Positions 3,051-21,055 of a stretch of 64,000 bases of DNA are shown piece by piece. Source of the stretch: Natronomonas moolapensis 8.8.11 (GTDB taxonomy: Archaea > Halobacteriota > Halobacteria > Halobacteriales > Haloarculaceae); contig NC_020388.1 in the NCBI RefSeq assembly GCF_000591055.1, positions 1,116,001-1,180,000 on the forward strand. Direction: 5' to 3'. The number at the start of each line of letters is the position of its first letter. The first letter of the stretch is position 1. The position numbers and the translations under genes are program-made. The notes beneath the pieces are model-generated. The model was not told the origin of the DNA, made no database searches, and was given only the letters and a program-made list of their open reading frames with translations.

Positions 3051-4163
3051 TCAGTCGTCAGCTAGTCCAGTACTCGTTTCGGGTACTTTTGCACCGACAT
3101 GCGAGAGTATTCCCCTGCCGATATGTTTTCCGAGCAATGGCGGAACGGCGTTCCCGATCAGTCGTCCCAAGTTCTTCACTCCGACCTCTTCCCATTCATC
3201 GTAGAAGTCGTAATCTTCTGGGAACGTTTGTAGCAGTGCACCCTCCAGAAGTGAGAGCGCTCTGTCCTGATCGGTGTCGTAGTGGCCGAATCGACCGCTC
3301 CCGTAGTTGTAGAACTGAGTCGTGATCGTCGGCGCTACCTTGTCGGGTTCCATCCGACTGTACGGGGCTTTATAAGAACGCCCACTGGACTTCTTGTGAC
3401 AGTCTGCAAGCAGGTGGGTTAATCCATCCTCTTCCCATAGACGCCAGTCACCGCCAGGCTTCATGTTCCGGATCCGTTCAAGATTTTTTTCTGAGAGACT
3501 TCGCGCTTGATGAAGGTCATACTCTGGGTGAACCTCGCCGGCTTGGAGTGGCGGAAGATGCCCAATCGCCTCCCGGACAGTGGGATACTCCGACTCATTT
3601 TCGTAAAGCGGGTCCGGGAGAGATATCGGCCCCTCTTTTGAGGCCATCATGACCCAGCGCTTACGATTCTGTGGAATTCCGTACTCTGGACAGTAAACCT
3701 TCTTATTCTCATCGTCGTTCACATGATACCCAAGATCTTTCAGGGTCTGTACAAATTCGTCGTAAACGTCGTCTTTCCGCACTTGAGGTACATTCTCGGT
3801 GATAATGATGTCGGGTTCAACATACTCAGAAATTTTTTTGATATCTTTGAGTAGTCCCCATTTTTGGTGGTCTTGATGTGTCTTATTTTTTGACTGGCCC
3901 ATTGTTGAGTACGGCTGACAAGGCGCACAGGCACCGAGAACGTCTAGATCCGAGTCCCAAGGGAACATCCTTGCAACACGCTCAGGATCCTGTGAAAGGG
4001 GGCGCACGTCGGTCTGCCTGTACTCGGCGTCAATATTCTGCTCGTATGCGTGCTTACAGTGTGGGTCCTTGTCAACTCCAACGTTCACCGAGATACCTGC
4101 TTGTTCCAGCCCATGGCTGAGGCCTCCAGAGCCACAAAAGAGGTCCACTGCGGTGATTTTCAT
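3051..4163 (-). CDS. drmMII: DNA (cytosine-5-)-methyltransferase, DISARM class 2 DrmMII-type (copy 2)
   Basis: A 370-residue C5 methylase, the second paralogue. Motif I DLFCGSGG (7-14), motif IV PCQPYS with catalytic Cys82, motif VI ENV (123-125), motif VIII QNRKR (165-169) and motif X GNAVPP (337-342) are intact. It shares with copy 1 the stretch from the ARSLSE region to TITTQFYN-GSGRFGHYDTDQDRALS, so the two may recognise related sites, but the regions around residues 85-110 and 180-215 differ. The start ATG at 4163 has a TATA box 25 bp upstream, fitting a leaderless transcript. It diverges from the ATPase module that starts at 4241. Role in self-marking is inferred from the DISARM context. 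Confidence 0.9.
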   Translation of the reverse strand: MKITAVDLFCGSGGLSHGLEQAGISVNVGVDKDPHCKHAYEQNIDAEYRQTDVRPLSQDPERVARMFPWDSDLDVLGACAPCQPYSTMGQSKNKTHQDHQKWGLLKDIKKISEYVEPDIIITENVPQVRKDDVYDEFVQTLKDLGYHVNDDENKKVYCPEYGIPQNRKRWVMMASKEGPISLPDPLYENESEYPTVREAIGHLPPLQAGEVHPEYDLHQARSLSEKNLERIRNMKPGGDWRLWEEDGLTHLLADCHKKSSGRSYKAPYSRMEPDKVAPTITTQFYNYGSGRFGHYDTDQDRALSLLEGALLQTFPEDYDFYDEWEEVGVKNLGRLIGNAVPPLLGKHIGRGILSHVGAKVPETSTGLADD

Positions 4164-4798: not shown

Positions 4799-6709
4799 AT
4801 GATTAGAAGGCCAAACGATACAGCGAGCGACGCAGAGTGGTTCTTCTTCAACGGCGGACCTGGTGTCCCACGATATGGAGATGACCCGACGAAACACTCC
4901 GTTGACCACGACTCCGAGGCGTTTGTCCGAGAGGTGTTACAGAATGCGAACGATCAAGCGCTGGACAACGAAGATCCAGTACGAGTCACTTTTCGGTTCG
5001 TCACCTTGTCTGGTGAGGATAAAGAGACATTCCTCAACGCTTTAGACTGGGGATCTGGACTCAAGGACCGATTGAGTGCTGTCTCCAGATCCAAACACGG
5101 TCGAAGATACGACGACCTCGTAGACAAAATGGACGACCTCGAGTCCGAATTACGTCTTCTAATTGTAGAAGATCAGAATACGACAGGACTCACGGGTACT
5201 TGGGAGGAGGACTCTAACTACGCCGCTCTCGTCCGAGACGAGTTGTATAGCAGCAAACAAGATGACACTGCCGGCGGCTCTTACGGGCTTGGCAAGTCGG
5301 TCCTCTGGACGTTCTCTGGAGCCTCTACAGTGGTTTTCAACTCGTACCCGGTAGAAATGTCCGAGAGTGCAGAGGAACCGCGAGTGATAGCACGGTCGAA
5401 ATTCCCGACCCACGAGCTTCCGGACGACGAAACCACCTATCAGGGTGCTGGATGGTTGTGTGAACCCGTACAGACGGAGCAGGGTGTCCGTCCCATGTCG
5501 ATACGGGGCGAGGAAGCGGAACGGCTCGCCGAACCTCTCCATGTCGGACGACCAGATTCTAGTGGCACTAGTGCGATGGTCGTGGATTTTCAGGACCCCA
5601 CTCAGGACGAACGACCCGATATCGAAGACCTGGCGGAAGAGTTCGTAGAGGCTTCGGTCAAGTACTTCTGGCCAGCTATCTTCCGTGACGATCTTAAGGT
5701 CACCGTTGAGACGTCCGGAGAGACGTACGAAGCGAACACGGAGGATGTCCCGTCTATCCGACCGTTCCTTGAGTGTTTCAAGTCCCGCTTCACGGAGAAC
5801 AAGTTGCTTGACAGTCCTGGCGACGTCGCAGGACTTGATATCCCACTAAACATCCCTCCGCAAGCAGACGGTTCCGAGACACAAAACGGTGAAGTCCGTC
5901 TGGGCGCTCGCTTAGCCTCTCCAGCAGACGACGACACCTATCTCAATAGAGTGGCCTTATTTAGAGGTGCAGGAATGGTCGTAAAGTACTACGATCAAAG
6001 TAGAGTAGCATTCGGGGACCGGAACTTCCACGCTATACTTGCTAGCGGGGAGGCACGTACCGACTTCCCACCATCTAATTCCGATCAAGAAGTTGATCGG
6101 TTCTTACGTTACGCCGAACCCCCCGAACATGACGAGTGGGAGTCCACCGAGAATCTTCGAGAACAGTACCAGCGTGGGTTCAGAACCGCTATCGAAGACA
6201 TGTTCGGGACGATGCGTGACGGCCTCCGTCATCTCATTGCTAAGAGCGACGGTGGGACAGATCTCCTCTCCGACAACGTACTGAACAGGTTCCCGATCCA
6301 CGGGAACGGGGCACCTAGAGTGACAGGTAACTCTGCCCCTTCAAAAGTATTTGAAATAGAAAGTTCCTCTCGGTTTGACGGTGATCGCTGGACTTTCTCG
6401 GGTCGAATTGAACCAATCGTCAAAGAATTCGAAGGGTGGACCGCTGAGATATCACTCACAGGTATTGGCGAAGACGGCTCAAGATACGACGAAATTCCGG
6501 TCGAATCTATCTTTGTGGACGACGAGAGCGTGACGAAGGTTCGTGAGAACGGGACAGCTAGATTAGTCGCAGATGCGAGTACGGAGAATGCCTCATTCGA
6601 AGGTTACTCGCATGCGACTGATAACGAAGACATATTAAACGGGAAAGTTGGTGAGACACAGATTGAGATCAAGGCGGAGATCCAGACTACTGAGGGTGAC
6701 GAATCTTGA
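4799..6709 (+). CDS. GHKL (MORC/MutL/Hsp90-like) ATPase of a defence locus
   Basis: A 636-residue ATPase. The N-box is visible as E45-x-x-Q-N49-x-x-D52 (REVLQNANDQ), followed by a G1-type stretch LIVEDQNTTGLTG (121-133) and a G2 lid GGSYGLGKS (159-167). In this fold the Glu activates water and the Asn binds magnesium. The remainder is mostly beta-strand, and the last 120 residues look like a separate beta-sandwich. GHKL ATPases of this type occur in restriction-modification-like operons with C5 methylases (Iyer, Abhiman and Aravind, 2008), which matches the two methylases next door. The stop overlaps the TTG start of the next gene by 4 nt, implying translational coupling. Its exact role (clamp, sensor or effector) is inferred only. 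Confidence 0.75.
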   Translation: MIRRPNDTASDAEWFFFNGGPGVPRYGDDPTKHSVDHDSEAFVREVLQNANDQALDNEDPVRVTFRFVTLSGEDKETFLNALDWGSGLKDRLSAVSRSKHGRRYDDLVDKMDDLESELRLLIVEDQNTTGLTGTWEEDSNYAALVRDELYSSKQDDTAGGSYGLGKSVLWTFSGASTVVFNSYPVEMSESAEEPRVIARSKFPTHELPDDETTYQGAGWLCEPVQTEQGVRPMSIRGEEAERLAEPLHVGRPDSSGTSAMVVDFQDPTQDERPDIEDLAEEFVEASVKYFWPAIFRDDLKVTVETSGETYEANTEDVPSIRPFLECFKSRFTENKLLDSPGDVAGLDIPLNIPPQADGSETQNGEVRLGARLASPADDDTYLNRVALFRGAGMVVKYYDQSRVAFGDRNFHAILASGEARTDFPPSNSDQEVDRFLRYAEPPEHDEWESTENLREQYQRGFRTAIEDMFGTMRDGLRHLIAKSDGGTDLLSDNVLNRFPIHGNGAPRVTGNSAPSKVFEIESSSRFDGDRWTFSGRIEPIVKEFEGWTAEISLTGIGEDGSRYDEIPVESIFVDDESVTKVRENGTARLVADASTENASFEGYSHATDNEDILNGKVGETQIEIKAEIQTTEGDES

Positions 6710-7737
6710 CTAAACACACGCAGCGACACAGAAGCACGACTCTCCCATTCAAATACCAGGATGCTGGACTTGATTTCGAACTGGAACAGTACTCCGTAGA
6801 TGGATCAAAGCCGAAGGAATTAGATCTTAAGCCAGGCCAGACCGAGATCAACCTGACACAGACGCTCCAGTCGGCAAAAGATGAGGGGGGCGATGATTGG
6901 GGAAAGGTCACGTTGTTCGGGCGTCTAAACGTTCCCGAAGGGGCGGTGAAAGATGTCTTTCCGGAGTCAGAACGTGATGAACCGCCTGCGAAACTCTATA
7001 TCACAGTGCGTTGTCACGAGACCATATACCGTGAGAAGGCGACCGTATCTGAGGAACCTACTACATCAGGTTCGTACAACGCGACAGTAAAGATACCGAA
7101 GGAGATGGTCAGAGGGACGATTGAACTTCGCCCGTATCTTGTGCGAACACAGGATAGAACCATGAACGGCCAGTACGCCGGGAAGAAGAACTTCAGACTT
7201 GCTAGTGGGACGATCTATTCTGTCGTTGTAGATCTCCCACCTGGAGAGAAGCCACCGGCGATTGATGGCGAAGAGATCAGCTTCTCACGCGCAGTACATC
7301 TTCCAGAGGGTGACAAACTCTACTATCTTGACTTTCGGAACGAGAAACGTCCGAAACTCTGGATCAACTCGGATCACCCTCGTATCACCGATATCCTTCA
7401 GAGCCGAGGTTCTGTTGGAGCCGAAGCGCGGATGCGGGACGTGATCCTAGACGAGATCAGTTACGGTGTCTGGTCCCAGCTGATTGTCCGGGCGGCCTGT
7501 GGTATTGGCGAAGACGGCGATGTTGAACAAGAGTGGCAGCAAACTGTCATTGAGACGTTTGCTCGGAATCTCTATGAGGTAGACAACGTCTCGGAAGCTG
7601 CGCGTAAACTGCGAGCGGACGTCGCCGATCCCGAGACCTTGCCCCATCTGATGGAACAGATTGATCAAGAGCTACAAGAATATATTGACCCGAGAACGCA
7701 ACTCATCAACCTCATGGAAGAAGGGCTCCGGATCTGA
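6706..7737 (+). CDS. unrecognised middle gene of the ATPase/DUF6339 operon
   Basis: A 343-residue protein with a TTG start overlapping the ATPase stop in a 4-nt TTGA arrangement. Residues 1-190 are rich in predicted beta strands (for example LYITVRCHETIY and GTIELRPYLVRT), and residues 230-343 are mainly helical and acidic. There are no signal peptide, membrane segments or known catalytic motifs. It ends 1 nt before the next ATG, so the three genes are surely co-translated and probably form one complex. I do not recognise a family. A nuclease fold hidden in the C-terminal half cannot be excluded by eye. Confidence 0.7.
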   Translation: MTKHTQRHRSTTLPFKYQDAGLDFELEQYSVDGSKPKELDLKPGQTEINLTQTLQSAKDEGGDDWGKVTLFGRLNVPEGAVKDVFPESERDEPPAKLYITVRCHETIYREKATVSEEPTTSGSYNATVKIPKEMVRGTIELRPYLVRTQDRTMNGQYAGKKNFRLASGTIYSVVVDLPPGEKPPAIDGEEISFSRAVHLPEGDKLYYLDFRNEKRPKLWINSDHPRITDILQSRGSVGAEARMRDVILDEISYGVWSQLIVRAACGIGEDGDVEQEWQQTVIETFARNLYEVDNVSEAARKLRADVADPETLPHLMEQIDQELQEYIDPRTQLINLMEEGLRI

Positions 7738-7738
7738 T

Positions 7739-8431
7739 ATGGCAGAGGAAGATCAGCTATATCGACTAGTTGGAGACGGACGGCGACTCATCGGCGAAGA
7801 GTTTCTGAAGGGAGAGGCGGAAATCCCTGACGAGGCATTAGATGAGTACGTTGAACCGATGCCGAGTGGAGCGACAGGCGATCTCCAGACGCTTGACTTA
7901 AGCGTCAAGAAGATCCTAGACGAATATTCCGAAACAGACACTGCGATTGACGGAGCCCTTGCTGAAGATGTCCATCGGTGTTTAGGTATTACTCGACGGA
8001 TGGCCGGCGATCCTGGTATATGGCACTGGATAGCGGTCGACCGGTATCCAGACTTCGTTCGCCATCGCTGGGAGTACCGCTCCGAGGCCGCGATGCGTGA
8101 GAAATTCCTCGGCGCTGGCTCAGACCTCTACTCTAACGCGATCCACCGGCTGTGGTGGATCGCCGAACTCACGTCCGATGGAGATGACTACACCCTAACG
8201 GAACAGGTGTTCGCGAACCAGACGATCGTCAACAAGGTTTTCGATCGATGGTTCGCACGGTATCAGCCAGCTGTTATCGCTATCTGTGATGAACTTGCTG
8301 ACGAGAAATCAGGTGTCATTGACGAAGCCACACGACGATTTAATCACGCTCTGACCAACGTGCAACTTGAAGCTCTTTCCGAAGATGATGCGCGTGACCT
8401 CACGAGACGGATTATAAAAGACGTCAGATGA
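7739..8431 (+). CDS. DUF6339-like protein, last gene of the ATPase operon
   Basis: A 230-residue protein read from the ATG at 7739, one base after the previous stop; an earlier in-frame start inside the upstream gene is less likely. It is mostly helical. The stretch around WHWIAVDRYPDFVRHRW and SNAIHRLWWIAELT resembles, from memory, the conserved core of DUF6339 proteins, which are found beside HATPase and Dcm genes in bacterial restriction-like loci. There is no catalytic motif I can name. The family assignment is tentative; the operon membership is clear from spacing. Confidence 0.6.
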   Translation: MAEEDQLYRLVGDGRRLIGEEFLKGEAEIPDEALDEYVEPMPSGATGDLQTLDLSVKKILDEYSETDTAIDGALAEDVHRCLGITRRMAGDPGIWHWIAVDRYPDFVRHRWEYRSEAAMREKFLGAGSDLYSNAIHRLWWIAELTSDGDDYTLTEQVFANQTIVNKVFDRWFARYQPAVIAICDELADEKSGVIDEATRRFNHALTNVQLEALSEDDARDLTRRIIKDVR

Positions 8432-9673: not shown

Positions 9674-10588
9674 TCACAGAGGTAATTTGACTTTTTTTGC
9701 GAAGTCGAAAACCACATCAAAGACGTCTACAGCGGATCCAACAGTCTCTCCTTGGAGGAGAATGCCCAACTCAAAGTTGTTTGAGAGACTCGTATCAGTC
9801 AAGTTTGCACTCCCGAGGTAACAGATGTCTCTGTCAGCTATCGCTATCTTCGCGTGCGTCGCGTAAGCTTGGCGTCCAGTCTCGTCATCTGATTCGTAGA
9901 GGTCACGAACTCTCAACAGGTGTCGATTCCCCGGATTGACTCTTTCGTGGACCGAGTTCAGTGTTGAGATGAGTTTTGAGTTCGCAGACCCCGTTTCGCG
10001 TGTTAGTATCTTCGTCGTAACTCCGCGATTTGCCAGGCTGGCAATATCGCCCACTACCGACGGATTTGGATTGAAGTACGGATTTGCGATCCGGACGACC
10101 GAATCTGCATCAAAGAACAACTTTCGTAGGTCGCTGGACAAGGGTCTAACGTCGGTCATCCCCTTGCGGTGGATTCCCGGAGGGAAGGTCGCTGTTAGTT
10201 CAACGTCCGGGGCCCTGCTAGTCTTCTCCGTCACGCCCGCTTCTTCTAAAGCCGCTCTAGCGATTCGTTGACCCTCTAAAATTCTAGCCGCAGCTTCACA
10301 CTCTACGGTGAAAGAGTAGTCAGCGAAGGATACTCCACTCCTCTTCTGATCTGCGACTCCGTTCAGTACCAAACCAGTAAAGAGGGACTCCGCATCTGAC
10401 TTTGAGAGTCTGTGGCGTTCGATAGATCTGTTTAGTTCTGTTCGGTTGATTTGGATAAGACGCTCTGATCGCTCGGCGAAGTAGTCCCTCAAGAGTGGCA
10501 GGATTTCCGAGTCGCTCACTCCCCGGGCGATGGTGAACTCAAGGTCGTTGTTGAACCACTCGTCGCTGGGTTCTCCATCGTCAATCAT
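9674..10588 (-). CDS. drmC: DISARM DrmC, phospholipase D-fold protein
   Basis: A 304-residue protein ending the drm operon, 6 nt after drmB. The C-terminal half is a phospholipase D domain with a single HKD motif: H245-x-K247 then D252, followed by GSANLT (259-264). PLD-fold proteins with one HKD usually act as dimers, and many cut nucleic acids. Residues 1-120 are helical and acidic. DrmC is a core gene of every described DISARM system, although it was reported as dispensable for protection in the Bacillus system. Nuclease function is inferred from the fold. Confidence 0.88.
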   Translation of the reverse strand: MIDDGEPSDEWFNNDLEFTIARGVSDSEILPLLRDYFAERSERLIQINRTELNRSIERHRLSKSDAESLFTGLVLNGVADQKRSGVSFADYSFTVECEAAARILEGQRIARAALEEAGVTEKTSRAPDVELTATFPPGIHRKGMTDVRPLSSDLRKLFFDADSVVRIANPYFNPNPSVVGDIASLANRGVTTKILTRETGSANSKLISTLNSVHERVNPGNRHLLRVRDLYESDDETGRQAYATHAKIAIADRDICYLGSANLTDTSLSNNFELGILLQGETVGSAVDVFDVVFDFAKKVKLPL

Positions 10589-12501: not shown

Positions 12502-15500
12502 TTAGTTGTCAGTGAACATCTGAAGTACGGACGCCGAGTCGGGTGTGGGGTACACGGGAATCTGTTCGTCGATGTCTCTGAGACTCCGCATCGGCCCCCG
12601 GTGATCCTCTTCCCTGTCGAGTAGAAATCCAATCCAGTCCTTCTTTGGATTGAGCGGTTTCTTCATGGCACGAGTCCACAATTCGTCAAAGTAACTCTCC
12701 AGCTTCTCCCGGTAGAGTTGCATACCGGTCGTGTCTGCCCACTCGCGTTCGTGATCCTCGGTGACGGCGTAACAACGCAACACCATCTCTAACATCTCTT
12801 CACGGTCTATGTCGCCGTTCCGAGCCGCTTCCTGTAGTCCTCCATGAAGATAGACACGGTCGTCGTACTTTCCCTCAAGCATTTCGTCGTAGTACTGGAT
12901 GATCAACCCAGCGAATATTCCAGGTAGAGTACACTCCACGGCGAATTCTGCCCACCGTTCCAACGGGGTCGCCTCAACGAGTAGGTCTTGGTACCGGTGG
13001 TAGTGATCGAAGCGAGTATAGTGGCTCCGGTCCCGTGCACGCATCGAATCAAACAGTAGGAACACGCTCCCCGTGTGACGTCGTCCAACTCGTGAGTACG
13101 CTTGGATGTACTCCGCGGTGTTCCGCGGCATACCGAAGAACGAGATGAAGTTGAATTTGTCAACATCAACCCCGTGGGATATCATTGATGTGGCGATGAC
13201 GATGTCGATTGGCCGATCCGGGTCATCAGATTCAAGTCGAGCGAGAGCGTCTCTGACCACACTCATCGGTGTTTCTCCGGTCAGAGATACGGGTGTGAGT
13301 GACTCGTAGGGGTCACCGTGAGACTCCAACTGCCAATTAATCATGGTCTTGACCGACCGTTGGAGCATGTCGCTATTGCTTTTCGAAATGTTGTACGATA
13401 TCTGCGTCTCGTATTGGGTCAAGAGATCTTCCAGTAGTTCCTTGCGTTCGCCGGCGTCGTCGGGCAAGTCCAGTGGGCCACTCGTCGCATCCACGGAGAG
13501 TAATGAGTCATATAGCGACTCCAGATTCGCACGGAACTCCTGAATGATCTGAGCGTACTCCTTAATAACGGTGTTTATAGCGAAGGTACGGGAGACGCTG
13601 CGAGGTACGGCACCGACCATTTCTCTGCCGAGTTGGTGTGGATCTTCGTACGCGTAGAACGACTGTTTCAGACGCGGTCCCTGTGACGGGAAGATTTTGG
13701 CGTCACGCCAGTAGAGAGCTTGAACCTGCTCCTCCGCACCGGCAATCGTCGCCGTCGCAGCTACGTATTTTGGATTCCACCCCCCATCGTTCACTTCGTC
13801 CATCCACTCTTGGAGGAACGTCTCATAGTGTGAATCAAATGCACCAAATTCCTCCCGTAAAAGGTGCAATTCGTCCTGAATAAAGAGGGATGGAGGATCA
13901 ACTGGGTCAACGGACTCCAACGACTCGCTGTCGCATTGGACGTCGTCCGGATAGTTCCAGTCGTCACACAGACAACCGTCTTCACCCGTATAACCATGGT
14001 CAAGACACCTGTGTTTTACCCGACCGAACAGAGTTCGTGCCCGCCGCTGCATCCCCATGATTGCGATCTTGTCTATCGTACTCACAACGAACGTGGGAGC
14101 GTATCGATACACCTCCTCATCTGTAATATATACGGGCAACTCAGCGGTCTCTCCCCCTTGGCGTTCTACTTCCGGACACTCGGAGTTCGTACACTGGTGA
14201 ACGATTCGTAGGCGTCGTTCGTCCCCGGTGACTTCCACGGAGTCTTCTCCACAGTAGGGACACTCCGAGACGATGAGCCAGTCTTCTTGCTTTTCTTCGT
14301 CGTCCCGGGCCTTTCTTGCGTTGTTCGCGCCGTTTGAGTCTCCCTCAATCACCTTGTTCGGAGTATTGTTCTTCCCGACAAAGTACCCAACACTGAATTC
14401 TTCTCCGCCGAAGTGATTGTCTTCTCTCCGGATCGTTTCTGCGCGACAGAGTACGTTCGCAATCCGCTGTAACTGCTGGAGGGAGAGTAACCGTAGAGGG
14501 AATTTCGTCCAAGCCGTTGTCCCGAAGTTCTTCCCGCGGAGACGGTCGTAGAAGGCTGTGAAGACGACGAGTCCGAGGTAAGCCTCTGTCTTCCCACCAC
14601 CGGTAGGGAAGTAGATCACGTCGCCTATGTTGAGACGATCTTCCACGTCCCGACCAGGATCTGCCTGGGCGACGATGTCCGGGATGCTCATTACGATGAA
14701 TATGATCTGGAACAGTCGCCACTCGGTGAACTCTTCACCCATTCGAGAGAACGTCCGGTTCAACGCTCTAAACGCTCTCTCTACGTTCTCATCTTCTCTG
14801 ATCAGTTCTCGCCCTCGCTGGAAACGCTCACGCTCGGCGACGAATTCTTCAATGGCGTTTTTGAACTCTTCTACGGCTTCGTCCGACTTCCCCTCCAGAG
14901 CTTCGTCCCTCACTTCGTCGTACTGTTCCGCGGCACGTTCCATCTCGTCCCTGATAGCACCTAACACATCATCTATGTCACCGTTGGCGAGATCTTCAAA
15001 AGGTGCCGGAACAGCTTCACGGGATCGGTACTTCGGTTGCTCATGGAAGGGAACCGTGGTCGTCTCGGCGTGAGTGACTGTTTCTCCTCCACCAGAGTTC
15101 ACCGCGCAGTTTTCACCAACCGCATAAATCTCTCCGTCATACTGGTACTCATCACGAATCTCCTGAGAATTAAACGGAAGGAGAGAAGCACCGTCTACAT
15201 CAACTGATAGACCAGCGTCAAAGAGGTATGTCTGCCACTCGGAACCACCTTCGACCGCGTTGTTGAAGTCCTCACCGTGGGTATTCACCAATTGAACGTT
15301 GATTGCGATGGATCCCTCGTCTGGTCGGTGACTACAGGTGATTCTCACAGAGCCCTCCCAGAGAGTCGGCACCGGGTCACCTGTGAACACCCGGTTGAGG
15401 TAATCCTCAAAGGCGGATTCGTCTTCTCGTGCATCTGGCGGAACGTCTTCTTTCTCTCTGTAGGTAGCGTCTGGATCGGCTTCCCGGAACGCTCTGCCGG

Positions 15501-16170
15501 CGTTCTCAAACTCTCTTCGTGCTTCAGCGAACGCCTGGTCTAAACTCTTGTTTATAGTTCGTCCAGTCTCGGCGGCGTCCTTGAGGTCCGAACCGGTCAG
15601 CTCTAACGACCGAAACGATGGCTCAATCCGTTCGTAAACACCGACCAAGCTCTGAGTTCGAGCGTCTTCGGTCTCGCCTCCGTCGGCACGGACGTCGGTC
15701 TCTCGGGCTTCTTCCATTTCAATATCCTCTGCAGCGTTCGCTAACTCACCGTGTTGTACCTGCTCTTTGTACGTCGGGAACCGCCTGTAGAACACCTTTG
15801 CATCCGGCGTCACGTCTACCACTGCGTCGTCGTCAACGTTATCGTCGATACGGAATTTTATACCGAGAGTAAACGGAGCGACTCTCGTAGCGATGTTCTG
15901 AAAAATGTCGTCTTCAGCTTGTGCTTCACGGTAGGGATACTGACTAGCGACGACACCCGCGAAGAACTGTTCTTGAGGATCTATCCCGAAAACCGTTTGT
16001 TGCTCTTCCCCCCGTCCGGTGATGCGGTTCGTGAGCCTCTGGGTGATGATTTTGTTGACGGCTTGATGCCGCCGGTACGAGGGATCGTCGGAGACTTCGT
16101 ACGCACTGTCTGGGGGACGGACGTACTCCGGGTCAGTTCTCGGAGGGATTGAGCTGAATCGAGGAGACAC
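12502..16170 (-). CDS. drmA: DISARM DrmA, superfamily 2 helicase
   Basis: A 1222-residue helicase with a GTG start at 16170. Walker A is PTGGGKTEAY (about 522-531) and the motif II box is DELH (about 766-769). The second RecA lobe is recognised by IVIATSMISHGVDVDKFN and the motif VI arginines in AYSRVGRRHTG. An insert with Cys pairs (CPYC at 637-640, then Cys near 660 and 665) probably binds zinc. The first 500 residues are an acidic helical domain without known motifs. DrmA uses ATP to move on or open DNA and works with DrmB. A 181-bp gap separates it from the upstream gene, so a second promoter is possible. Confidence 0.92.
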   Translation of the reverse strand: MSPRFSSIPPRTDPEYVRPPDSAYEVSDDPSYRRHQAVNKIITQRLTNRITGRGEEQQTVFGIDPQEQFFAGVVASQYPYREAQAEDDIFQNIATRVAPFTLGIKFRIDDNVDDDAVVDVTPDAKVFYRRFPTYKEQVQHGELANAAEDIEMEEARETDVRADGGETEDARTQSLVGVYERIEPSFRSLELTGSDLKDAAETGRTINKSLDQAFAEARREFENAGRAFREADPDATYREKEDVPPDAREDESAFEDYLNRVFTGDPVPTLWEGSVRITCSHRPDEGSIAINVQLVNTHGEDFNNAVEGGSEWQTYLFDAGLSVDVDGASLLPFNSQEIRDEYQYDGEIYAVGENCAVNSGGGETVTHAETTTVPFHEQPKYRSREAVPAPFEDLANGDIDDVLGAIRDEMERAAEQYDEVRDEALEGKSDEAVEEFKNAIEEFVAERERFQRGRELIREDENVERAFRALNRTFSRMGEEFTEWRLFQIIFIVMSIPDIVAQADPGRDVEDRLNIGDVIYFPTGGGKTEAYLGLVVFTAFYDRLRGKNFGTTAWTKFPLRLLSLQQLQRIANVLCRAETIRREDNHFGGEEFSVGYFVGKNNTPNKVIEGDSNGANNARKARDDEEKQEDWLIVSECPYCGEDSVEVTGDERRLRIVHQCTNSECPEVERQGGETAELPVYITDEEVYRYAPTFVVSTIDKIAIMGMQRRARTLFGRVKHRCLDHGYTGEDGCLCDDWNYPDDVQCDSESLESVDPVDPPSLFIQDELHLLREEFGAFDSHYETFLQEWMDEVNDGGWNPKYVAATATIAGAEEQVQALYWRDAKIFPSQGPRLKQSFYAYEDPHQLGREMVGAVPRSVSRTFAINTVIKEYAQIIQEFRANLESLYDSLLSVDATSGPLDLPDDAGERKELLEDLLTQYETQISYNISKSNSDMLQRSVKTMINWQLESHGDPYESLTPVSLTGETPMSVVRDALARLESDDPDRPIDIVIATSMISHGVDVDKFNFISFFGMPRNTAEYIQAYSRVGRRHTGSVFLLFDSMRARDRSHYTRFDHYHRYQDLLVEATPLERWAEFAVECTLPGIFAGLIIQYYDEMLEGKYDDRVYLHGGLQEAARNGDIDREEMLEMVLRCYAVTEDHEREWADTTGMQLYREKLESYFDELWTRAMKKPLNPKKDWIGFLLDREEDHRGPMRSLRDIDEQIPVYPTPDSASVLQMFTDN

Positions 16171-16351: not shown

Positions 16352-19300
16352 TCACTCAACGTCGCCGTCTTCGCTTACCTCCTCTATCTCTTCTACAGTA
16401 TGGTGAGTGCCAGCTTCCGAGACGCGAGTGGGTTTATCAGCGTTCATTTGTTCTTTGATAGTATCGTGTAGCTCGTGACCCTGTTGCCGGTTGATTGTTC
16501 GGAGCCCTTCCATCGCCGCTTCTATTCCTTTTGGATCGGCGACGAGTTTTTGATACTCAAAAGCACGACCGATAGCCTCTATGTCGAGATACGATCTCGG
16601 GCCGATAGTTAATGAAGGATCTTCTACAAGGTCAATCGGGCCATCTGCTTCCAGTACAGATTTGAACCAAGTTCGGACCGTTGCTTTCGTACGGTCAAAG
16701 TCGTCGTTTGATCCTTTCACACGGTCGTATATCGTATCATGTATTTTCGAATTTGTATCCATCTCGTCGGGAGAAAGCTTGTCCGCGACGCGTTGCCGAA
16801 TGTCTTCTATTGCGTTGTACCAGTCATTTAAATGGTTGATTGCGTGATCAGGACTAATCTCTTCTTCGTAGAGGTTTCGAAGTTGCTCTTGCCAGAGTTC
16901 CGTTTCCAGCTCATCCGGAATCGTCACGAATACATCACCGTCGGTTAGAGCTTCAGGACTCACCCAGTGGTACTCAACGTCATCGAGGTTTGCTCGCTCT
17001 CGGAGGGTCCGGTCGTGATTCGTTAGTTCAACTTCTTCACCACTTGTAGTTTCAACGACGTAGTGTTGAACCTCTCTATCGTACCGTCCTGACTCTTCAC
17101 GATATTCGCGGGCGGAGACTGATTGAATAGTGTCCGCCAGGATATCGGCTTTCGACTTAGGTTGTGAACCCGTCGCAGACCGAGACGCTGAAGATTGAGC
17201 GTCAGACCCCTGGGAGGACGTTTCAGATGTGCCGTCAGGGGGTACCTCCCGTTCATTGACTGGCTCTGGTTCGCTGTCTCCGGATAGCTCCGGGTAGGCA
17301 TAGGGCGAGTAATCAGAACCGGCGACGACGCCGTTCAGAGTATCGACGAACTCACGGGCGTGTCGCTCCACCATCGTAGCCCAGGTTCGGTCATAGGTCA
17401 GCACCACGGTTTGGGCCACCCTCGGGTGGAGATAGAAGCCCGCGTTCTCCTTGTGGAGTACACCACAAACAACGAGTACATCTTTCGGGTCTATCCATCT
17501 AGCTTCGTCAGGTGAGACGACAGAGATAGTGGCCGAATCTAGTTCGTCTTGAGTGACTACTTCACGTTTCAAGAGGGAGTACCGGAGAATCTCTGCGTGT
17601 TTCGGACTCTCGCTAAAAATCGCCACGCGTCGCCCGTCCTCCCTCCCGCTTTTGATGTATTCTCTCAACGCTTCGAACATGGGGTTCTGTTCTTCTAATA
17701 TTTGAGCTATTTGTTCGAATATATTGGCAGACTTATTAAGAGGACGGACCGCTTGGAGATTATCGACAGAGTCTGCTCTCTGTTCAACGTCCTCTATTCG
17801 TTCCTGAATCATCGGAGGTACGAACCGCTCCCCTTCGTAGTAGCGTTCTCGAATCCACTCATTGAAGTCTTCACTTGGGACAGGTAGGCGTTCAAAGAAC
17901 AACTGCCGCGAGAAGATCATCCCCCCCGCACCGCCATCGTCAACTCCTCTGAGGGTGGCCGATTTTTCGAAGACTTGATCCAACAACGACGAGATATCTT
18001 CCGCCTCTACGTGGTCTATCTTAATTGACGCCGACGTGGCTAGTGCACGTACGTCGTCGTCACCTATGGACCAAATGGCTTGTTCCGTGTCGTCCTTCGT
18101 TGAGTTCTCAGGTGGGTTAGAACTTCCAGAAAGCGAGCTATTCAGGCGAGAATCCCTGTCGAAACTAGCTCCTCTGATTGCACTGTCAATCGTTTCAAGC
18201 CCAGGGACTGTTGAAGCCGAATCAAGTCCGAGCGGAGGACCGTAACGTGGGCGTCCGTCCCGTTCGTTCTTCACGAAATAACTGTACGTGTTGACGAACG
18301 TGGCATCTGGATGTACATCCTCTACGTCTTCAAATCGCTCGTTAGTGTCTTCTCGTGTCCTGGACGTTAAGTTTGACAAGACGACGTCTACGTTACTAAC
18401 GTGTTTTAAATCTCTCAATTTCTTACAGAGAATAAAACGTCCAGGGCCGTGTCCGTCGGAGGCATTTTTTACCTCACCATCCCAGACGTACGCGTGCGGA
18501 ACAAGTTCCGGGATGGGCTTCGCGCTTACTACCTCCCCGGCGACATCGGAGAGAGCGAACCTCTGTAGTTCTTTTCTGATCTCCCCTTTCATTCCCCAGT
18601 GTGTTCGCGACCCTGGTGAGAACAAGCCAACCTGTCTCTCCTCTTCAGGATCGGTTAATACAATCGCTATTGCAATCAAAACGACATCTCTCGGTTCATA
18701 ATACGGAAGTACCACTGGGGCGTTTTCTCCCCGGTTCACGTGTCTAACGACCTTGTCTACGGTCTCTCGCCTGACCCCTCCGAAGCCGACATCTTTCCAC
18801 AGACCTTCTTTTGTACGTTTCTTGAGGTTGAGATCTCCCTCGGTTCTATCAAATAGACCGATCTCCGGTTTGTCCATTCGAAGGGTTTGATTGAGTGAAG
18901 AAGAGCTCTCATCGTTTCGCTGCGAGAGTTCCTTTAGTACCCCAGAAGCCTTGTCGGCGACCTTCGTGTCCCCTTCTGCCAGTTGTTTTAATCTGGGTGG
19001 CGGTGGGTAGAAACCGGCAGCTGAAACACTCTCTATTGCCGCTATCACGATAGACTGGTCATCTGACTCCAATGCCCGCAAAGCGACCTTCCCCAGGTTT
19101 GCCGGAAGCGTGGATTTTTGTCTACCAATCGTTGATATAACTCCCAACCCTTCTATGGCGTCAGTGTGTTCTCTCCGGTCAATAAGCTTAATCAACCTCT
19201 CTGATCTCTGTAATATGGCCTCCGGTGCGCGTTTTGAGACTCTTGACAGGAAACGCCAGACTACATCTCTGTCCTCTAAGTCCTCTTCTAAGAGGCTGAA

Positions 19301-20542
19301 CGCTCGTTCTGTGATTGTGTGGTACACTCGTATTGTTCCACTCCGCGACGTGAATGAGACAACGTCCAGTGCTTCCGAGAGGGTATTAGGCTCGGCACTA
19401 TCTATCAAACTAGAAATCCTCTCTGAATTGTCTGAGATGACCTCAGGAGCACCTTCTGCAACTCTTGAAAGAATTCGCCACGATACGTCTTCTTCCTTGG
19501 CTTCTTGTTCCAGATCAGTCAACGCCTGATCCGCGGTTGTGCGATAAACTGGGATGGGTTCGTCCCTTGGTACAAACGAGAGCACGTCCAGTGCGTTCAA
19601 GAGGGAAGAGGGGTCTGCGTCATTAAGCAACCTTGACAACCTCTCTGAATTATCCGAAACGACGTTCGGATCGCCTTCTGCAACCCCTTTGAGAAATTCC
19701 CACGCACTACGATGAGCTTCGGGATCCTGTTCAAGCAGCGCTAACGACTTTTTGATGATTGGTTTCGCTACTTCTTTGCTCTTCGCCGCGATACGATTGG
19801 TGGCAGTCCTAACTTCCTTTACATCTTTTTCGTCTAGCTGTAGCGAGTCCAACGACAAATTCTGAATGTGTTTAATTCCCTCCGATTCAGATATAATCCC
19901 TGTCGCGTACAGTTCGGAAAAAGAGACAATCTCGTCACTGGTTCTCATGTGGCCGTTACTACATAGAGAACTGGCGACAATTCTTCCGGCTTCTTCAAGA
20001 GCAACCTCACGAGAGTTGAGGACCGAGTCTACCTCATAGGAAGGTTCTTCTACCAGTTTTCTAATCGCCTGTGGGGTTGCGATCCGGCCCAACAATCTGT
20101 AACCTAGTGAGCGTTGTGCTGCATCACCATGCTCAAGTAATTGATCAAGGTCGCTATGAGAAAAATTTGGAAAGTCATCATCTGGTCCTGTATTCTGTAT
20201 AACCGTCTGAAGTATTGACGTACACCAGTTTACTATCTTACCGTGTGACGGTTCTTTTCCGTTCAAATTGTGTAGTTCTTCATTAAGTTCTTGCGTAACA
20301 ACTGGAACGGCTGTAGTAGCTAATTCCGGATACGCTTCCGTCATCCGTTTTAATTCTTTGTAAATCTGATACTGGTTGTATCGGTTGTTGTCTTCTTCAA
20401 CAGCAAACACTATATCATCTATCCAAGATTCAACTAAATGTCGGGGAAGTGGGTCTATTTTACTGATGATACTAATAGCTTTAAGACGGTGGTCATCGCT
20501 ACGGAGGGCCCCTCCGATAGCCTCTATTTTATTATCTTCCAT
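16352..20542 (-). CDS. large DrmE-like protein with HEAT-type repeats at the head of the drm operon
   Basis: A 1396-residue protein, first gene of the operon. Residues 1-510 are helical and HEAT-like, containing three tandem units of about 73 residues (roughly 279-500). Each unit has an ERLSRLL-, ERISSLI- or ERLIKLI-type helix followed by ALDVLSF-, ALDVVSF- or GLGVIST. Residues 590-1070 form a distinct domain with stretches such as QVGLFSPGSRTHWGMKGEI, NVDVVLSNLTSRTREDTNE and VVCGVLHKENAGFYLHP. This domain occupies the position and neighbourhood of DrmE, the class 2 DISARM protein of unknown function. The C-terminal 300 residues are acidic. No Walker motifs were found. It is much longer than I recall for DrmE, because of the repeat domain and tail. 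The DrmE label is inference from position plus a remembered likeness. Confidence 0.65.
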   Translation of the reverse strand: MEDNKIEAIGGALRSDDHRLKAISIISKIDPLPRHLVESWIDDIVFAVEEDNNRYNQYQIYKELKRMTEAYPELATTAVPVVTQELNEELHNLNGKEPSHGKIVNWCTSILQTVIQNTGPDDDFPNFSHSDLDQLLEHGDAAQRSLGYRLLGRIATPQAIRKLVEEPSYEVDSVLNSREVALEEAGRIVASSLCSNGHMRTSDEIVSFSELYATGIISESEGIKHIQNLSLDSLQLDEKDVKEVRTATNRIAAKSKEVAKPIIKKSLALLEQDPEAHRSAWEFLKGVAEGDPNVVSDNSERLSRLLNDADPSSLLNALDVLSFVPRDEPIPVYRTTADQALTDLEQEAKEEDVSWRILSRVAEGAPEVISDNSERISSLIDSAEPNTLSEALDVVSFTSRSGTIRVYHTITERAFSLLEEDLEDRDVVWRFLSRVSKRAPEAILQRSERLIKLIDRREHTDAIEGLGVISTIGRQKSTLPANLGKVALRALESDDQSIVIAAIESVSAAGFYPPPPRLKQLAEGDTKVADKASGVLKELSQRNDESSSSLNQTLRMDKPEIGLFDRTEGDLNLKKRTKEGLWKDVGFGGVRRETVDKVVRHVNRGENAPVVLPYYEPRDVVLIAIAIVLTDPEEERQVGLFSPGSRTHWGMKGEIRKELQRFALSDVAGEVVSAKPIPELVPHAYVWDGEVKNASDGHGPGRFILCKKLRDLKHVSNVDVVLSNLTSRTREDTNERFEDVEDVHPDATFVNTYSYFVKNERDGRPRYGPPLGLDSASTVPGLETIDSAIRGASFDRDSRLNSSLSGSSNPPENSTKDDTEQAIWSIGDDDVRALATSASIKIDHVEAEDISSLLDQVFEKSATLRGVDDGGAGGMIFSRQLFFERLPVPSEDFNEWIRERYYEGERFVPPMIQERIEDVEQRADSVDNLQAVRPLNKSANIFEQIAQILEEQNPMFEALREYIKSGREDGRRVAIFSESPKHAEILRYSLLKREVVTQDELDSATISVVSPDEARWIDPKDVLVVCGVLHKENAGFYLHPRVAQTVVLTYDRTWATMVERHAREFVDTLNGVVAGSDYSPYAYPELSGDSEPEPVNEREVPPDGTSETSSQGSDAQSSASRSATGSQPKSKADILADTIQSVSAREYREESGRYDREVQHYVVETTSGEEVELTNHDRTLRERANLDDVEYHWVSPEALTDGDVFVTIPDELETELWQEQLRNLYEEEISPDHAINHLNDWYNAIEDIRQRVADKLSPDEMDTNSKIHDTIYDRVKGSNDDFDRTKATVRTWFKSVLEADGPIDLVEDPSLTIGPRSYLDIEAIGRAFEYQKLVADPKGIEAAMEGLRTINRQQGHELHDTIKEQMNADKPTRVSEAGTHHTVEEIEEVSEDGDVE

Positions 20543-20982: not shown

Positions 20983-21055
20983 TGGGTCCGGGCGGAGTCG
21001 AACCACCGATCTCGTCCTTGTAAGGGACGCGTCATAACCACTAGACCACGGACCC
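20983..21055 (-). tRNA. tRNA-Val (anticodon TAC)
   Basis: The minus strand folds as a full cloverleaf: acceptor GGGTCCG pairing with CGGACCC, D arm GGTCTAGTGGTTATGAC, anticodon stem CGTCC/GGACG around a loop with TAC, T arm containing GGTTCGACTCC, and discriminator A. The 3' end faces the island, which is the usual orientation for integration at tRNA genes. Confidence 0.95.

What the first reader, a model, noticed from the sequence alone, without database searches (positions are those of the whole stretch)
16352..20542. Oversized DrmE-like protein with three internal 73-residue repeats
Residues about 279-500 hold three tandem units sharing an ER-L/I-S-L/I-L/I helix and a downstream A-L-D-V-x-S-F segment. 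They extend a HEAT-like N-terminal domain of about 500 residues ahead of the DrmE-like part. No Walker motifs were seen. A repeat scaffold on DrmE could recruit phage components or DrmAB and would be a new architecture.
Basis: partly seen in the sequence, partly recalled or inferred. Interest (0 to 1): 0.65.

Follow-up and report, generated by a model that had tools for sequence, protein, structure and literature searches.

The report
Antiviral DrmE with helical-repeat arm
This salt-loving archaeon carries a DISARM antiviral system in which the poorly understood subunit DrmE has gained a long, fast-changing helical-repeat arm; the same unrecognised variant occurs in at least 11 other haloarchaeal genomes, where public annotation, in the one case checked, calls it a hypothetical protein.

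Summary
The gene is on the minus strand (1396 aa). It has three tandem units of exactly 74 residues (not 73) at 265-338, 339-412 and 413-486. Self-alignment scores 288, against a maximum of 52 in shuffles. The closest relative, in Halalkalicoccus paucihalophilus, lacks exactly 148 residues, two units. AlphaFold2 gives residues 1-510 as an all-helical solenoid with two hairpins per unit. Foldseek finds HEAT/ARM proteins.

Residues 583-1391 align end to end with ordinary DrmE (hhalign E 3e-31). NCBIfam DrmE_fam matches at 9.5e-19 but scores below its cut-off, and PADLOC misses it. DrmA, DrmB and DrmC follow in order, with DrmMII-type methyltransferases nearby, so this is class 2 DISARM.

The extension is not normal for DrmE: ordinary archaeal forms are about 700-880 aa. 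It is also not unique. Long DrmEs in 12 haloarchaeal genomes form one clade on the core tree. RefSeq calls the one checked 'hypothetical protein'. Between the two closest relatives the solenoid is 40% identical, against 69% for the core, 86% for DrmA and 91% for DrmB.

Best reading: a fast-evolving protein-docking or sensing arm on DrmE. The partner is unknown and the function is untested. New variant of a known kind.

The parts
16352..20542 (-). long DrmE gene, 1396 aa
   Evidence: ORF and translation; NCBIfam NF038316 E 9.5e-19
19013..20542 (-). N-terminal HEAT/ARM-type alpha-solenoid, residues 1-510
   Evidence: AF2 model all-helical, mean pLDDT 75; Foldseek to HEAT/ARM proteins
19529..19750 (-). 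74-residue repeat unit A, residues 265-338
   Evidence: self-alignment, unit HMM
19307..19528 (-). 74-residue repeat unit B, residues 339-412
19085..19306 (-). 74-residue repeat unit C, residues 413-486; aligns with the single unit of the H. paucihalophilus protein
18797..19012 (-). low-confidence linker, residues 511-582
   Evidence: pLDDT below 50 for most of 512-561
16370..18796 (-). DrmE core, residues 583-1391
   Evidence: hhalign to 21 ordinary archaeal DrmEs, E 3.3e-31, 702 columns
12502..16170 (-). drmA, SF2 helicase, 1222 aa
   Evidence: PADLOC DrmA PDLC02576, 1404 bits
10595..12481 (-). drmB, DUF1998/MZB protein, 628 aa
   Evidence: PADLOC DrmB 603 bits; Pfam MZB
9674..10588 (-). drmC, PLD-family protein, 304 aa
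   Evidence: PADLOC DrmC 206 bits; Pfam PLDc_2
3051..4163 (-). drmMII cytosine-5 DNA methyltransferase, 370 aa
   Evidence: PADLOC DrmMII 656 bits
1093..2202 (-). second DrmMII-like cytosine-5 methyltransferase, 369 aa
   Evidence: PADLOC DrmMII 431 bits

Best explanation
This is the DrmE subunit of a haloarchaeal class 2 DISARM system with a ~510-residue HEAT/ARM-type solenoid fused in front of a complete DrmE core. Shown by computation: the DrmE core, its place ahead of drmA-drmB-drmC, the solenoid fold prediction, the exact unit-number change between relatives, and fast divergence of the solenoid. Inferred: the core keeps the usual DrmE role with the DrmAB helicase, while the solenoid is a protein-docking arm that ties DrmE (and so DISARM) to a quickly changing partner, either a viral component that signals infection or a variable host or defence protein. 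Adding or removing 74-residue units (two helical hairpins each) would lengthen or re-curve the arm and change what it fits.
For: DrmE identity: NF038316 E 9.5e-19; hhalign 583-1391 to ordinary DrmE 40-819, E 3.3e-31; same slot before drmA-drmB-drmC as in 20 ordinary archaeal loci. Solenoid: AF2 and Foldseek, HEAT hits of homologues. Docking arm: solenoid 40% identical to the nearest relative, against core 69%, DrmA 86%, DrmB 91%, DrmC 70%, MTase 70%; two-unit length difference; net charge of units A and B more acidic than DrmA/DrmB, so nucleic-acid binding there is less likely; HEAT solenoids usually dock proteins (established knowledge).
Against: No partner is identified and no experiment exists. 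Fast divergence also fits relaxed constraint on a spacer. The DrmE score is below the NCBIfam cut-off and PADLOC has no hit. The core AF2 model failed (pLDDT 31), so the core fold is untested. Three of the long DrmEs have no drmA within the ~20 kb fetched (L031, L034, L035).
Confidence: 0.55

Rival explanations
1. The solenoid binds nucleic acid and helps DrmE-DrmAB grip viral DNA, as some HEAT proteins (AlkD/AlkC type, condensin subunits) do.
For: HEAT folds can bind DNA; unit C has net charge +2 where the other regions are acidic; DISARM acts on DNA (PMC9142583).
Against: Units A and B carry -7 and -9 net charge per 74 residues, more acidic per residue than DrmA/DrmB; DNA-binding surfaces are usually conserved, but this is the least conserved module.
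Confidence: 0.2
2. The extension is a permissive spacer: unit number drifts neutrally and contributes little function.
For: Fast divergence (40% identity), unit-number change; the related short protein in G215 (L029) has the core without the solenoid.
Against: The ORF stays open with helix periodicity kept across three units, and homologous N-terminal regions persist through a deep clade.
Confidence: 0.15
3. The protein is not DrmE but an unrelated gene that replaced it.
For: Below the NCBIfam cut-off, no PADLOC hit, no Pfam DrmE_C hit for this protein itself.
Against: End-to-end profile alignment E 3.3e-31, NF038316 E 9.5e-19, DrmE_C hits in 10 of 13 long or related cores, conserved gene slot.
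Confidence: 0.05

Closest known systems
DrmE of class 2 DISARM (NCBIfam NF038316/NF038323; Pfam DrmE_N and DrmE_C)
   Same: Residues 583-1391 align along the whole ordinary protein; same slot before drmA-drmB-drmC.
   Different: A ~510-residue HEAT/ARM solenoid plus linker is added in front; the core is so diverged that PADLOC misses it and NCBIfam scores it below cut-off.
Class 2 DISARM system (DrmE, DrmA, DrmB, DrmC, DrmMII)
   Same: All components present and colinear for E-A-B-C.
   Different: PDC-M33-like genes lie between drmC and drmMII, a second DrmMII-like methyltransferase is present, and transposase-like fragments lie between the two methyltransferases.
Stand-alone haloarchaeal HEAT-repeat proteins (L083-L086, 408-457 aa)
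   Same: Match the 74-residue unit (E 2e-9 to 2e-13) and Pfam HEAT models.
   Different: No DrmE core; role unknown.
HEAT/ARM scaffolds SF3B1, CAND1, PP2A-A, karyopherins
   Same: Fold class by Foldseek, E about 1e-4 to 1e-6.
   Different: No sequence relationship; TM-scores normalised to the query 0.22-0.45, so only the repeat type agrees and not the overall curvature.

Membership tests
DrmE family | Match to curated DrmE profile | tested here: inconclusive
   NF038316 E 9.5e-19 but 67 bits against a cut-off of 80; NF038323 15 bits against 250; PADLOC none
DrmE family | Full-length homology to other DrmEs | tested here: met
   hhalign 702 columns, 583-1391 to 40-819 of 831, E 3.3e-31
DrmE family | Pfam DrmE_C domain | tested here: inconclusive
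   10 of 13 related cores hit it (E up to 1, best 3.4e-6); this protein itself does not
Class 2 DISARM | drmA, drmB, drmC beside drmE | tested here: met
   PADLOC 1404, 603 and 206 bits; order E-A-B-C
Class 2 DISARM | DrmMII cytosine methyltransferase | tested here: met
   656 bits at 3051-4163, same strand, about 5.5 kb beyond drmC
Class 2 DISARM | Antiviral activity | not testable with these tools
   needs infection assays
HEAT/ARM repeat proteins | Tandem helical hairpins of about 35-45 residues stacking into a solenoid | tested here: met
   AF2 and Foldseek; prediction from a 2-sequence alignment
HEAT/ARM repeat proteins | Pfam HEAT/ARM match of the protein itself above cut-off | tested here: not met
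   HEAT_2 E 0.32, Adaptin_N E 0.048, below cut-offs; two related N-termini, L034 and L032, hit HEAT_2 at 5.5e-8 and 6.3e-5. I therefore say HEAT/ARM-type, not a Pfam HEAT member

The most novel reading that the evidence does not exclude
The solenoid is a direct infection sensor: its variable units bind a fast-evolving halovirus protein and switch on DrmAB through the DrmE core, making DISARM protein-triggered as well as DNA-triggered in this clade.
Probability: 0.15. Interest if true: 0.7.

Novelty: new variant of a known kind. Interest (0 to 1): 0.42.

Why it matters
DrmE's role in DISARM was still named an open question in the 2022 DrmAB structure paper (PMC9142583). A clade in which DrmE carries a fast-evolving solenoid, with a natural pair differing by exactly two units, gives a clean way to ask what DrmE contacts. 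It also suggests that DISARM loci in haloarchaea are under-called, since PADLOC misses this DrmE and RefSeq names the one example checked 'hypothetical protein'.

Tried and rejected
AF2 of the core (residues 556-1396, two-sequence alignment) gave pLDDT 31 and was not used. A degenerate SF1/SF2 helicase reading of the core (strand-loop-helix patterns, no Walker A) was tested by profile comparison with DrmA (E 0.11, probability 0.6%), Pfam (Helicase_C E 0.15 in one ordinary member) and PDB sequences (nothing significant); it stays an unproven lead. Viral-contig scans found no long DrmE; the DrmA scan found one distant locus whose ORFs did not match the DrmE profiles. The phage collection gave no match. 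I considered that the repeats might be normal in all DrmEs: rejected, as ordinary archaeal forms are 695-883 aa and the DrmE profiles are 785-838 positions long. I considered a lineage-unique oddity: rejected, as long forms occur in 12 genomes.

Full report
Observation. The gene at 16352-20542 is on the minus strand and encodes 1396 aa. Ungapped self-comparison gives a best score of 288 at lag 74 (residues 265-400 against 339-474) and 96 at lag 148; 60 composition-preserving shuffles reached at most 52. The units are therefore exactly 74 residues: 265-338, 339-412 and 413-486. Identities are 46% (A-B), 36% (B-C) and 26% (A-C), so these are not fresh copies.

Unit number differs between relatives. 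The nearest homologue, in Halalkalicoccus paucihalophilus (L027/L028, 1253 aa), aligns end to end except for a gap of 148 residues, exactly two units, and keeps one unit most like unit C (41%). Whether this window gained two units or the relative lost them cannot be told from two sequences.

Fold of the extension. AF2 on residues 1-561 with a two-row alignment gives helices almost throughout, mean pLDDT 75, pTM 0.52, with low confidence after residue 512. The helix pattern repeats every 74 residues, with two helical hairpins per unit. Foldseek against the PDB returns HEAT/ARM scaffolds (SF3B1, CAND1, PP2A-A, karyopherins, AP2), best E 2.3e-6, with query-normalised TM-scores of 0.22-0.45, so the repeat class is supported but no particular overall shape. 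The protein itself does not pass Pfam HEAT cut-offs. Stand-alone haloarchaeal proteins that match the unit hit HEAT_2 and HEAT_EZ strongly, and the N-termini of two related long DrmEs (L034, L032) hit HEAT_2.

The core is DrmE. NCBIfam DrmE_fam matches residues 841-1372 at E 9.5e-19, below the curated cut-off. A profile of eight long forms aligns with a profile of 21 ordinary archaeal DrmEs over 583-1391 to 40-819 of 831, E 3.3e-31. So the long form is a whole DrmE with about 575 residues added in front. Pfam DrmE_C is hit by 10 of 13 related cores but not by this one.

Context. Downstream on the same strand are DrmA, DrmB and DrmC, and beyond them DrmMII plus a second DrmMII-like enzyme. In all 20 ordinary archaeal DrmE loci fetched, drmA follows drmE in the same direction, mostly with drmB and drmC behind it. 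The region from the window start to about 21 kb has about 52% G+C against mostly 60-70% beyond, and a tRNA-Val lies at its edge (20983-21055): a likely acquired island.

Distribution. Long DrmEs (1144-1445 aa) occur in this genome and 11 other haloarchaeal genomes. Nine of the twelve sit beside drmA; L031, L034 and L035 have none within the fetched stretch. Ordinary archaeal DrmEs, in haloarchaea and in other members of the phylum, are 695-883 aa. On a tree of the core the long forms group together with 99/98 support, with one short relative (L029, no solenoid) inside. DrmAs partnered with long DrmE fall in three places on the DrmA tree, so long DrmE and DrmA have been exchanged or acquired separately more than once. 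RefSeq calls the Haladaptatus long form 'hypothetical protein' but calls several ordinary haloarchaeal ones 'DrmE family protein'. No held paper that I found describes a HEAT-extended DrmE.

How it may work. DrmAB binds 5'-overhang DNA and its ATPase is essential; DrmE's role was left open (PMC9142583). Between the two nearest loci the solenoid is 40% identical, the DrmE core 69%, the C-terminal part 62%, DrmA 86%, DrmB 91%, DrmC 70% and the methyltransferase 70%. A fast-changing solenoid of variable length in an otherwise conserved machine is what one expects of a docking or sensing arm with a changing partner. This step is inference. Nucleic-acid binding is less likely because units A and B are very acidic, and a neutral spacer is not excluded.

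M33 link. PADLOC 'PDC-M33' genes lie near drmE in four of nine long-DrmE DISARM loci. In G100 they read M33A-M33B-M33C-drmE-drmA-drmB-drmC, with 5 bases between M33C and drmE. An M33 gene was seen in 1 of 20 ordinary loci (Fisher one-sided p 0.02; the loci are related and the comparison was chosen after seeing the data). M33A has GHKL-ATPase-like motifs (EVLQNAND, GGSYGLGKS). The M33 proteins are candidate partners of the solenoid.

Verdict. Function of the arm is untested.

Noticed in passing
4799-8431 (+ strand): Three genes matching PADLOC phage-defence candidate M33A and M33C (M33B only at E 0.045). They are linked to long-DrmE DISARM loci in four genomes and sit directly upstream of drmE in the same direction in G100 (L030). 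M33A has GHKL-ATPase-like motifs.
   Followed up: partly
20983-21055: tRNA-Val(tac) at the edge of the low-G+C region. A 56-base piece covering its 3' end and downstream flank recurs at 98% identity at G000:C1:622861-622916, perhaps the footprint of a related integrating element.
   Followed up: partly
1093-2202 and 3051-4163: Two DrmMII-like cytosine methyltransferases, separated by ORFs at 2267-2908 that look like broken transposase pieces.
   Followed up: no
L029:6892-9225: The H. paucihalophilus genome has a second, 777-aa DrmE-core protein beside the M33 genes and DrmMII, without solenoid or DrmE C-terminal region. A DUF5797 hit found in one of the 13 cores may be this protein; the table did not say which.
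   Followed up: partly
L031, L034, L035: Long DrmE without drmA within the ~20 kb fetched. In L035 it lies next to two cytosine methyltransferases, in L031 near restriction-type genes: possible uses outside DISARM.
   Followed up: partly
L083-L086: Stand-alone 408-457 aa haloarchaeal HEAT-repeat proteins related to the 74-residue unit; role unknown.
   Followed up: partly
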